Source: Defluviitaleaceae bacterium (lineage in GTDB: Bacteria; Bacillota; Clostridia; Lachnospirales; UBA5962). Taken from it: a DNA stretch of 36,912 nt. The notes beneath the pieces are model-generated. The model saw nothing but the letters and a program-made list of their open reading frames with translations, searched no databases and was not told the DNA's origin. Each line of letters opens with the position of its first letter. The stretch's first letter is position 1. The position numbers and the translations under genes were made by a program. This document shows positions 25,458 to 31,819 of the stretch, piece by piece. The stretch lies in the NCBI GenBank assembly GCA_009787355.1, contig WRGD01000142.1, positions 1-36,912 on the forward strand, read 5' to 3'.

Positions 25458-25503
25458 ATATCAAAAAATATAAATAACTTAATCTTTGGAGGATTTTTAT
25501 AAA

Positions 25504-25824
25504 ATGAACGAACTTGAATTTTTAAACTTAATATCTAACCCACAAAACCAAGCTATACAATCTGCTGCTATACTTTTATCTATAACTGCTATATCTGCTG
25601 TTCTGGCACTTATACCTGCTATTTTCGTAGCTATAGCTCAAGGAAATATAGGTGCTAAAGCAACTGAAGCAGTTGGAAGAAACCCAGAAGCAAGCAAAGA
25701 AATTACTTCTACAATGATAGTTTCTTGTGCTATTGCTGAAACTTCTGGTATATATGGTCTTTTAATCGCTCTTATATTGATATTTGTTAACCCATTATTT
25801 AACTTATTTATTTCTTTACTGTAA
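25504..25824 (+). CDS. atpE: ATP synthase Fo subunit c, Na+-type
   Basis: 106 residues, longer than the usual 70-90 by an N-terminal extension of about 15. Two helices flank the polar loop GRNPEASKE. Aligned to the Ilyobacter tartaricus c subunit with a constant offset of 14, the Na+ ligand positions Gln32, Val63, Glu65, Ser66 and Tyr70 correspond to Gln46, Ile77, Glu79, Thr80 and Tyr84 here; Ile and Thr are conservative changes. The helix-1 glycine ladder is altered (Ala39, Phe41, Ala43, Ala45, Gly47). The start is ATG 25504 with TTGGAGGA upstream; an in-frame TTG at 25486 overlaps that site. Na+ coupling is inferred from these residues. Confidence 0.95.
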   Translation: MNELEFLNLISNPQNQAIQSAAILLSITAISAVLALIPAIFVAIAQGNIGAKATEAVGRNPEASKEITSTMIVSCAIAETSGIYGLLIALILIFVNPLFNLFISLL

Positions 25825-26957: not shown

Positions 26958-28979
26958 ATGGAGCTTAGACCCGAAGAAATAAGCCAGGTTATTAAATCTC
27001 ACATAATGGAATACACAAATAAAGTAGAGCTCGAAGCTGTTGGAACTGTTATTCAGGTTGGAGACGGTATTGCAAGAGTTTATGGACTAAACAATGCAAT
27101 GAGTGGAGAGTTACTTAGTTTTGAAAACGGTGTTGTTGGTATGGCATTAAATCTTGAAGAAGACAACATTGGTGTTGTTCTTTTGGGTAGCGATGCTGGC
27201 ATAAAAGAAGGCGATACTGTAAAACTAACTGGAAAAGTTGCAGAAATAGGAGTAGGTGATGCCTTACTAGGTAGAGTTGTAAATGCCTTGGGTGAACCTA
27301 TAGACGAAAAAGGACCTATTGAAACTACTGCAACAAGACCTATAGAACGAGAAGCACCCGGTGTTATTACAAGGCAAGAAGTAAATATACCTCTTCAAAC
27401 AGGTATAAAATCTATAGATGCTATGGTTCCTATAGGACGTGGTCAACGTGAGCTAATAATAGGTGATAGACAAACAGGAAAAACAGCTATTTGTATAGAT
27501 ACTATTATCAACCAAAAAGGGCAAGGTATAAACTGTATATATGTTGCAATTGGACAAAAAGCTAGTACAGTTGCACGTATTGTGAAATCGCTAGAAGAAG
27601 CTGGAGCTATGGAATATACTACAATAGTTGTAGCTAGTGCAAGTGAAGTTGCACCACTACAATATCTTGCTCCATATTCCGGTGTTGCAATTGCGGAACA
27701 TTGGTTGTACGAAGGAAGTAAATTTGGTAAAGACTGTTTAATAGTTTACGACGATTTAAGTAAACATGCAGTTGCATACCGTGCATTGTCTCTATTACTT
27801 CGTAGACCTCCAGGACGTGAGGCATATCCTGGAGATGTTTTTTACCTTCACTCTAGATTGTTGGAACGTGCCGTAAAACTAAACCCAGAATTTGGAGGAG
27901 GTTCTATTACAGCATTACCAGTAATAGAAACACAAGCTGGAGATGTTTCTGCATATATACCAACAAATGTTATATCTATAACAGACGGGCAAATATTTTT
28001 AGAAGCAAGTTTATTCAACTCTGGTGTTAGACCAGCTATAAACCCAGGTTTGTCTGTTTCTCGTGTTGGTGGTAGTGCACAAATAAAGGCAATGAAAAAG
28101 ATATCTGGCCCTATTCGTATAGAGCTTGCTCAATATAGAGAGCTTGCTGCTTTTGCACAATTCGGTTCAGATTTGGATAAAGCAACGCTTGAAAGATTAG
28201 AGCATGGTAAACGTATAGTTGAAATGTTGAAACAAGGACAATTCAAACCTTTAAGTGTGGCACAAGAAGTTATAACACTTTTTGCTACAACTAAAGGATA
28301 TTTAAAGGATGTTGAAGTAAGCCGAGTTGTAGAATTTGAAACAGCTTTACTTGACTACTTAGAAAATAATAGTTTTGTAATAACAGGTCTTGAAAGTGTT
28401 GCAACAAACGAACAATTTGTAAAAGTATTTAAAAATGGAAGTATACCAAAATTAGAAAAAATTGATGTAGATATTTCTAATTTACCAAAAGATTTTACAT
28501 CCGAAGTGCAGGACAAAATTTCAAAAATTTTAGAAGAAGCTATAAAAGAAGAAATTTCTAAAGATGCTCTTTCAAAACTTGTAATAGATTTAATGAAAAT
28601 TTTTGAAGAAGAGTCCAAAAAAAGTGCAGATATATCTAAAAGAGAACTATTTATGTCTTACGCTGCTTTAATAATAAATATTGTAAACACAGCCGAGTTT
28701 GATAATTCATCAAAAAATGTTATTTTAGAAAATCTTAAATCTTTAAAGATAAATAGTGTAATATCTTCTGAAAGTAAAGATTTCTTACTGGCAACTATTG
28801 CAACGTTACAATGTATTATTACTCTTCTTGTAGCAAATGTTTTAGTATCTGACAAAGAAAAAGATATTAAAAAATTAGCTTTAAAGGCTATAGATATATT
28901 GCAAAATGAATCAGAAGAAATTTTAGAAATTTCTATTCATTCGGATATTTTAGATTTCAAGCAAACAGCTTGGAAATAG
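26958..28979 (+). CDS. atpA: ATP synthase F1 subunit alpha with ~170-residue C-terminal extension
   Basis: 673 residues, against about 500-515 in typical bacterial alpha subunits. Residues 1-470 are a normal alpha: beta-barrel domain, P-loop GDRQTGKT (169-176), [14 protein letters not shown], and the C-terminal helical region up to LLDYLEN. From about residue 471 the sequence departs from the usual ending and runs on for 203 residues without a stop. This tail is mostly helical and charged, with two hydrophobic stretches (about 564-578 and 609-630, the latter [20 protein letters not shown]). Codon use does not change at the join. AAAGGAGG at the end of atpH serves the ATG, and atpG follows 13 bases later with AGGAGG. 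I recognise no domain in the tail. Confidence 0.95.
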
Positions 28980-28992
28980 GAGGTAAAATATT

Positions 28993-29883
28993 ATGCCGTC
29001 CATGATAGATATTAAAAGCCGTATGAAAAGTATAAAAGGTACGCAGCAAATGACAAAAGCGATGAATTTGGTTGCAAGTTCAAAACTTGGTCGTGCAAAG
29101 CAAAAGCTTTTTAGCAGTCGTCCTTTTACTAAAGAGAGTCAGCGAATCATTTCTAATATACTAGATATACTAGAAATTTCAGAAGAAAAAACAGAACATC
29201 CTTTTTTTGTTAATAAAAAAGGGAAATCACTATTTATTATAATCACAAGTGATAGAGGTTTATGTGGCGGTTATAATACAAATGCAATAAAAGAAGTAGA
29301 AGAAGCAATATATGAAAATACTGAAAATAATCAAAATGCTATACTCTATACAATTGGGAAAAGATGTAGTGATTATTTTATAAAAAGAGGTAGAAATATA
29401 CTTGTCTCTACTGTAGGTATTTCCGAACAACCAACATATTATGATGCAAAAATAATATCCGATAAAATAACAAAAGAATTTTTGTCTGGAAATATTTCTT
29501 CTGTTTTTATAACGTATACTTATTTTGAATCTATTATTTCTCATAAGCCTATTGTAGAACGTATTTTACCAATAGACCCGAAAGATTTAATACTCGAAGA
29601 TAATGATAGTAAAGGTAAAGATTTAACAATATATGAACCTGGAATAAAAGAATTGCTTGAATTTTTATTACCAAAGTATATTACAACTAAAATATATGAT
29701 TCTCTCGTAGAAAGTGCAACTTGTGAACAAGGTGCAAGAATGACAAGTATGGATAGTGCAACAAAAAATGCAAAAGAAGCACTTGCAAATATGAACCTAA
29801 TATATAATAGAGCAAGACAGTCTGCAATTACACAAGAAATATCAGAAATTGTTGGTGGTGCAAACGCAATACAACAAGGCTAA
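28993..29883 (+). CDS. atpG: ATP synthase F1 subunit gamma
   Basis: 296 residues, standard gamma length. The N-terminal helix has DIKSRMKSIKGTQQMTKAM and the C-terminal helix ends SAITQEISEIVGGANAI, the two antiparallel helices of the rotor shaft. ITSDRGLCGGYN is the conserved middle strand. The start is ATG 28993, with AGGAGG eight bases upstream; an internal ATG at 29002 is possible but less well placed. Confidence 0.95.
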   Translation: MPSMIDIKSRMKSIKGTQQMTKAMNLVASSKLGRAKQKLFSSRPFTKESQRIISNILDILEISEEKTEHPFFVNKKGKSLFIIITSDRGLCGGYNTNAIKEVEEAIYENTENNQNAILYTIGKRCSDYFIKRGRNILVSTVGISEQPTYYDAKIISDKITKEFLSGNISSVFITYTYFESIISHKPIVERILPIDPKDLILEDNDSKGKDLTIYEPGIKELLEFLLPKYITTKIYDSLVESATCEQGARMTSMDSATKNAKEALANMNLIYNRARQSAITQEISEIVGGANAIQQG

Positions 29884-29895
29884 TACTATGTTTAA

Positions 29896-31401
<1,506 letters not shown>

Positions 31402-31411
31402 GAGGTATATT

Positions 31412-31819
31412 ATGATACTTTCTATTCTTACACCTGTAAGAAATTTTTATACTGGTGAAATTAAATCTGTTTCTTTAGAAACAAAAGATGGAAAATTAGT
31501 AATACAGCCTAGATATGCTCCTTTTGTTTGTTCTCTTGTAGATGGTATTGCAACTATAACTACGGCATCTGATGAAAAAATAGTTGCATCTATAATGAGT
31601 GGTTTTGCTGAAGTAATAAATGATAAAGTAACAATACTTACAGATAGTGCGGAATTGCCAGATGATGTAGATGACAATAGAGCCGTTTTAGCTAAAGAAA
31701 GAGCAAAACAACGCTTATTAGCTGTAAAAAATGAAGAAGAAATAGACAGAGAAAGAGCACTTAAAGCACTTACTAGAGCAGAAATTAGAATTAAGTTAAA
31801 ACTCTTAAACAAGAAATAA
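31412..31819 (+). CDS. atpC: ATP synthase F1 subunit epsilon
   Basis: 135 residues: an N-terminal beta-sandwich (LSILTPVRNFYTGEIKSVSLETKDG) and a two-helix C-terminal domain (DNRAVLAKERAKQRL and ALTRAEIRIKLKLLN) that can act as an ATPase brake. Last gene of the operon, followed directly by a terminator. Confidence 0.93.
   Translation: MILSILTPVRNFYTGEIKSVSLETKDGKLVIQPRYAPFVCSLVDGIATITTASDEKIVASIMSGFAEVINDKVTILTDSAELPDDVDDNRAVLAKERAKQRLLAVKNEEEIDRERALKALTRAEIRIKLKLLNKK

What the first reader, a model, noticed from the sequence alone, without database searches (positions are those of the whole stretch)
25504..25824. Sodium-type c subunit with a broken glycine ladder
Gln46, Ile77, Glu79, Thr80 and Tyr84 fall on the Na+ ligand positions of the Ilyobacter tartaricus c-ring at a constant offset, so the ring should carry Na+. 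Yet the helix-1 GxGxGxGxG pattern that sets helix packing is AxFxAxAxG (Ala39, Phe41, Ala43, Ala45, Gly47). Alanines in this motif are tied to altered ring size in alkaliphilic bacilli; a bulky Phe is more extreme. The ring stoichiometry and thus the ion/ATP ratio may be unusual.
Basis: partly seen in the sequence, partly recalled or inferred. Interest (0 to 1): 0.62.

Follow-up and report, generated by a model that had tools for sequence, protein, structure and literature searches.

The report
Sodium ATP-synthase rotor lacking glycine ladder
This is an ordinary sodium-type rotor protein of ATP synthase whose usually glycine-rich packing helix has lost nearly all its glycines and carries a bulky phenylalanine; the same position has gone bulky in other gut and digester bacteria, so the rotor may hold an unusual number of subunits, but sequence alone cannot say how many.

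Summary
The gene at 25504-25824 is the single F-type c subunit of a complete atpI-a-c-b-delta-alpha-gamma-beta-epsilon operon. The Na+ ligands (Gln46, Ile77, Glu79, Thr80, Tyr84) align with the I. tartaricus ring at offset +14, and the ladder reads AxFxAxAxG. The erosion is larger than reported: the upstream Gly17/Gly19 positions are Ser31/Val33, and Pro28 is Val42. Phe at position 27 is not unique. Nine other species genomes among 84,980 have it in a Na+-type c subunit, and all 13 listed members of another family of the same order have Leu or Phe there. In our lineage it is recent: the sister genus (alpha tree, support 100/100) still has AxGPGIGQG. Na+ coupling is well supported by sequence. 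The step from ladder to ring size is only partly supported: the same AxGxGxGxG motif occurs in solved c9, c10 and c14 rings, so the motif cannot be read as a subunit count. Still, the closest motif of known size (AxGxAxAxG, Burkholderia N-type, c17) and the OF4 alanine ring (c13) both point to more than 11. I call it a new variant of a known kind, with ring size open and testable.

The parts
25504..25824 (+). atpE, F-type ATP synthase c subunit, 106 aa; helix 1 about residues 13-59, helix 2 residues 61-94
   Evidence: AlphaFold2 model pLDDT 92.8; best structural matches are the Na+ rings 3zk1, 4bem and 1yce, Z 10.1-10.4
25489..25493 (+). Shine-Dalgarno GGAGG of the c gene
   Evidence: direct reading
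25594..25602 (+). Ser31-Ala32-Val33, at canonical Gly17-Ala18-Gly19
   Evidence: alignment A1, table
25618..25644 (+). eroded glycine ladder A39-I-F41-V-A43-I-A45-Q-G47 (canonical G25xG27PG29xG31QG33)
25639..25641 (+). Gln46, Na+ ligand (Gln32)
   Evidence: ligand roles in PMC3692424
25732..25755 (+). Ile77 to Tyr84: second half of the Na+ site (V63 carbonyl, E65, S66, T67, Y70 positions)
   Evidence: PMC3692424
24286..24657 (+). atpI
   Evidence: PF03899 28.7 bits
24777..25457 (+). atpB, a subunit (stator arginine in SLAFRLFGN)
   Evidence: PF00119
25882..26424 (+). atpF, b subunit
   Evidence: PF00430
26409..26957 (+). atpH, delta subunit
   Evidence: PF00213
26958..28979 (+). atpA, alpha subunit with an extra stretch of about 165 aa in its C-terminal part
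   Evidence: TIGR00962 796 bits over residues 3-475; extra stretch shared only with sister genus G006 among the family's full-length alphas
28993..29883 (+). atpG, gamma subunit
   Evidence: PF00231
29998..31401 (+). atpD, beta subunit (the listed ORF starts at a TTG at 29908; the likely ATG is near 29998)
   Evidence: alpha/beta-type match at 30007-31224
31412..31819 (+). atpC, epsilon subunit
   Evidence: PF02823

Best explanation
This is the only rotor (c) subunit of a working Na+-coupled F1Fo ATP synthase in an anaerobic, probably uncultured Clostridia bacterium (order inferred to be Lachnospirales). Identical hairpins form a homomeric ring. [quoted passage not shown] The glycine ladder that usually lets inner helices pack closely has been lost in this genus after it split from its sister. 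The inner helices must therefore pack differently. On an ideal helix Phe41 is the ladder residue pointing farthest from the ion site (about -140 degrees), towards the pore side or the far neighbour, where a large side chain is easiest to house. A ring larger than 11 is more likely than not, but its number is undetermined. Shown: gene, operon, ligands, eroded ladder, recurrence, recent origin. Inferred: Na+ coupling, packing direction, ring size.
For: Gap-free match to the Na+ rings with all ligands kept. Complete operon with one F-type c gene in the genome. Confident hairpin model whose closest structures are Na+ rings. Two rnfC-rnfD clusters, ion-pumping partners common in Na+ economies. Recurrent bulky position 27 elsewhere with Na+ ligands kept. 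Sister genus G006 keeps AxGPGIGQG while alpha groups it with ours at 100/100 support. Closest motifs of known size are AxGxAxAxG = c17 and all-Ala = c13. Single ladder mutations in I. tartaricus increase ring size without necessarily losing Na+ coupling (PMC3692424).
Against: No biochemical data. Na+ sites of this type also bind H+. Motif and ring size correlate weakly across solved rings (Spearman 0.56, p 0.09, n 10, not independent). The species is seen in one draft genome only, so sequence error cannot be excluded by a second copy.
Confidence: 0.75

Rival explanations
1. The eroded ladder gives a markedly larger ring (13 or more subunits, Na+/ATP of 4.3 or more), letting the cell make ATP at low sodium-motive force or pump more Na+ per ATP.
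For: Motif equals the c17 Burkholderia motif except for Phe at position 27. OF4 all-Ala ring is c13 and its two-Gly mutant is c12 (chain counts). Ladder bulk is higher than in any solved ring tabulated.
Against: AxGxGxGxG occurs in c9, c10 and c14 rings, and SxGxGxGxG in c14 and c15, so other positions also set the size. No ring with Phe or Leu at 27 has been counted in the papers I found.
Confidence: 0.4
2. The ring stays at about 11 subunits. Phe41 tilts to the pore side and compensating changes elsewhere (Val33, Ser31, Val42, helix 2) restore close packing.
For: Ideal-helix azimuth puts residue 27 farthest from the ion site. Most lineages with Phe or Leu at 27 keep Gly at 31 and 33. All Na+ F-type rings listed in PMC3692424 were reported as c11.
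Against: Here position 31 is Ala too, and the neighbouring glycines 17, 19, 25 and 29 are also lost, so little of the close-packing surface remains.
Confidence: 0.35
3. The enzyme is coupled to H+ in the cell although it has a Na+-type site.
For: Na+-type sites also bind protons (PMC3692424 discusses H+ selectivity).
Against: The full hydrogen-bonded Na+ ligand set is kept, as in the aligned relatives.
Confidence: 0.12
4. The ladder residues are a sequencing or assembly error, or the gene is decaying.
For: Only one draft genome (152 contigs) of the species.
Against: Intact frame, good ribosome-binding site, intact operon, all ligands kept, and substitutions are in frame and hydrophobic. Related genera of the same family show partial erosion at the same positions.
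Confidence: 0.04

Closest known systems
Ilyobacter tartaricus c11 ring (1yce) and Fusobacterium nucleatum c11 ring (3zk1)
   Same: Na+ ligand set, hairpin fold, loop; 39-40% identity in the structural alignment, Z 10.1-10.4
   Different: They have GxGPGxGQ/EG; here AxFVAxAQG. Ours has about 14 more residues at the N-terminus
Acetobacterium woodii c2 subunit of the 9:1 heteromeric ring (4bem)
   Same: Clostridial Na+ c subunit, 45% identity in the structural alignment
   Different: It keeps GxGxGxGxG and is accompanied by a double-hairpin c1; this genome has a single F-type c gene
Burkholderia pseudomallei N-type ATPase c17 ring
   Same: Ladder AxGxAxAxG, one residue different from ours in the five positions (PMC5376962)
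   Different: A different operon type; our subunits score below the NCBIfam alternate-F1Fo cut-offs
Bacillus pseudofirmus OF4 c13 ring (2x2v)
   Same: Glycine ladder replaced by alanines, giving looser inner-helix packing (PMC2914638)
   Different: H+ site; five alanines and no aromatic residue
c subunits with Leu or Phe at position 27 in family f5 of the same order and in termite-gut and digester MAGs (L033-L035, L037-L042)
   Same: Bulky residue at position 27 with loss of Pro28 and usually Gly29, Na+ ligands kept
   Different: They keep Gly31, and most keep Gly25; nearest is AxFxAxGxG in L039

Membership tests
F-type ATP synthase c subunit (Pfam PF00137) | Profile match over the curated cut-off | tested here: met
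   59.4 bits against 24; TIGR01260 46.4 against 43.95
F-type ATP synthase c subunit (Pfam PF00137) | Two-helix hairpin with a polar loop and one carboxylate in helix 2 | tested here: met
   Model pLDDT 92.8, matches c-ring chains at Z 9-10; Glu79 invariant
F-type ATP synthase c subunit (Pfam PF00137) | Encoded within an atp operon with a, b, delta, alpha, gamma, beta, epsilon | tested here: met
Na+-dependent F-type c subunits | Q/E32, E65, S/T66, Y70 ligand set | tested here: met
Na+-dependent F-type c subunits | Na+ binding and Na+-coupled transport | not testable with these tools
   needs DCCD competition or transport assay
Na+-dependent F-type c subunits | GxGxGxGxG ladder (typical, not defining: accepted c subunits such as OF4 lack it) | tested here: not met
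   one of five glycines kept
Na+-dependent F-type c subunits | c11 stoichiometry reported for all Na+ F-type rings listed in PMC3692424 (observed so far, not defining) | not testable with these tools
   ring must be counted
N-type (alternate) F1Fo ATPase | Match to alternate-F1Fo models over the cut-off | tested here: not met
   c 43.7 of 130.85, alpha 598.7 of 750.5, a 104.2 of 302.1 bits
A. woodii-type heteromeric Na+ ring | Additional double-hairpin c gene | tested here: not met
   one F-type c match in the genome; the second PF00137 match is an A/V-type K subunit on C131

The most novel reading that the evidence does not exclude
Several unrelated anaerobe lineages independently replaced the glycine ladder by bulky residues at position 27 while keeping the Na+ site, producing Na+-driven rings that are not c11 and adapting ATP synthesis to a low sodium-motive force. 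The window's protein would be the most extreme case, with an aromatic residue at a helix-helix position.
Probability: 0.35. Interest if true: 0.65.

Novelty: new variant of a known kind. Interest (0 to 1): 0.4.

Why it matters
PMC3692424 leaves open whether c11 is universal for Na+-driven F-type rings, and links the question to their shared glycine motif. Natural Na+ c subunits with almost no ladder, some with Phe or Leu in it, are direct test cases. Ring size sets the ion/ATP ratio, so the answer bears on how little energy these gut and digester anaerobes need to make ATP.

Tried and rejected
One search is void: my pattern was one base short, so its 0 hits mean nothing; it was corrected and rerun. 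The Trueperaceae hit L036 is a chance match (no c-subunit sequence around it). Reading ring size off ladder volume was tested on ten solved or published rings and rejected as a predictor. Membership in the N-type ATPases was rejected on NCBIfam scores. A heteromeric A. woodii-like ring was rejected because there is one F-type c gene. Oxaloacetate decarboxylase beta as Na+ pump: not found. A literature search with all terms for an aromatic residue in the ladder found nothing, which is weak evidence because that library is partial. The alpha extension gave no Pfam family and only a low-confidence model, so I did not search with it. Multi-chain ring modelling is not available here.

Full report
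WHAT IS THERE. The window (contig C142 of a 2.25 Mb, 152-contig genome, 96% complete) holds a complete F-type operon: atpI, a, c, b, delta, alpha, gamma, beta, epsilon. The c gene at 25504-25824 encodes 106 residues from an ATG with GGAGG upstream. It passes Pfam PF00137 and TIGR01260. It is the only F-type c gene; the other PF00137 match (C131, L001) is the K subunit of an A/V-type ATPase.

Gln46, Ile77, Glu79, Thr80 and Tyr84 stand at Gln32, Val63, Glu65, Ser66 and Tyr70, and Ser81 at the water-binding Thr67. The ligand roles are those given in PMC3692424. The ladder is A39-F41-A43-A45-G47. The erosion goes further than stated: Gly17 and Gly19 are Ser31 and Val33, and Pro28 is Val42.

IS IT UNIQUE? 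No, though it is the most eroded case I found. A pattern requiring Phe at position 27 plus a Na+-type site (Q/E32, G33, R45, P47, E65, G68, Y70) found ten stretches in 84,980 species genomes. Nine are real c subunits; one (L036) is chance. They come from MAGs titled Oscillospiraceae, Defluviitaleaceae, Fretibacterium, Tissierellia, Clostridiales and Acholeplasmataceae; several carry isolate codes that I read as insect-gut or digester samples (habitat inferred from names, not checked). L039 is AxFxAxGxG, one residue from ours. In the same order, all 13 listed genomes of family f5 have Leu (12) or Phe (1) at position 27, with Pro28 lost and Gly29 mostly Thr or Ser (the list was cut off, and the other listed families read Gly at 27 by eye, apart from ours). 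G041 of a third family has Phe. In our own family the position is F (ours), A, S, L, G, G, G in seven genera. In a sample of 398 genomes across the phylum, in which f5 was not sampled, only ours had Phe, Leu, Ile, Met or Val there together with the Na+-type site. Records very near the window may have been left out of the genome-contig scan.

RECENT ORIGIN. An alpha-subunit tree puts our genus with G006 at 100/100 support. G006 has AxGPGIGQG. So Phe27, Ala29 and Ala31 most simply arose in our lineage after that split, independently of f5. The tree has long branches elsewhere (L040, L048, L050), but not in this pair.

HOW IT LIKELY WORKS. The AlphaFold2 model is a confident hairpin (pLDDT 92.8) whose best structural matches are the Na+ rings 3zk1, 4bem and 1yce (Z 10.4, 10.2, 10.1, tied). 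With the ligand set intact it should bind Na+ between neighbours and carry it past subunit a. The genome also holds two rnfC-rnfD clusters, likely ion-pumping partners; whether they pump Na+ is not shown. On an ideal helix, residues 25, 29 and 33 lie at +20 to +100 degrees from the ion-site residue and residue 27 at -140. Phe41 should therefore point to the pore side or the far neighbour. This is geometry, not a model of the ring.

RING SIZE. Within one scaffold, ladder changes alter size: OF4 all-alanine is c13, its mutant with two glycines is c12 (chain counts; PMC2914638), and I. tartaricus single mutations raise it (PMC3692424). Burkholderia AxGxAxAxG is c17 (PMC5376962). Across scaffolds the motif fails as a readout: AxGxGxGxG is c9 in mycobacteria, c10 in Bacillus PS3 and c14 in a chloroplast ring, and SxGxGxGxG is c14 or c15 (sequences; sizes from chain counts and established knowledge). 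Ladder volume against size gives Spearman 0.56, p 0.09, over ten non-independent rings. I put the chance of a ring of 12 or more at somewhat above one half, and do not name a number.

VERDICT. A functional Na+-type F-ATP synthase rotor with an eroded ladder: a new variant of a known kind. It is useful because PMC3692424 leaves open whether c11 is universal for Na+ F-type rings. These naturally ladder-less Na+ rings would test it.

Noticed in passing
window 26958-28979 (+): The alpha subunit has 673 residues. About 165 extra, predicted helical residues sit in the C-terminal region before a conserved end ([15 protein letters not shown]). The stretch is shared only with sister genus G006 (33% identity), not with three other genera of the family that have full-length alpha genes (G001, G003, G005). 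No Pfam match; AlphaFold2 model of low confidence (pLDDT 53).
   Followed up: partly
L065 and L066 (family f5 genomes G116, G032): The alpha subunit there is also enlarged (open frames of 682-684 aa) by a different C-terminal stretch, so alpha C-terminal growth seems to have happened at least twice.
   Followed up: partly
L055 (contig C73) and L056 (contig C147) of the same genome: Two separate rnfC-rnfD clusters, one continuing into rnfG and rnfE: apparently two Rnf complexes in one small genome.
   Followed up: partly
L004 1504-1800 (genome G001, same family): The c subunit has Glu instead of Gln at the position-32 ligand and Ser at position 31 (AxAxGxSEG), a two-carboxylate-type site with an eroded ladder.
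   Followed up: no
L001 (contig C131): The genome also encodes an A/V-type ATPase with a K subunit that looks like a single hairpin, so two rotary ATPases coexist.
   Followed up: partly
genome G002 (same family), C1:570885-572375, 751265-752737, 1060378-1061840: Carries two complete-looking atpA genes plus a third copy interrupted by stop codons, so several F-type operons in one genome.
   Followed up: no
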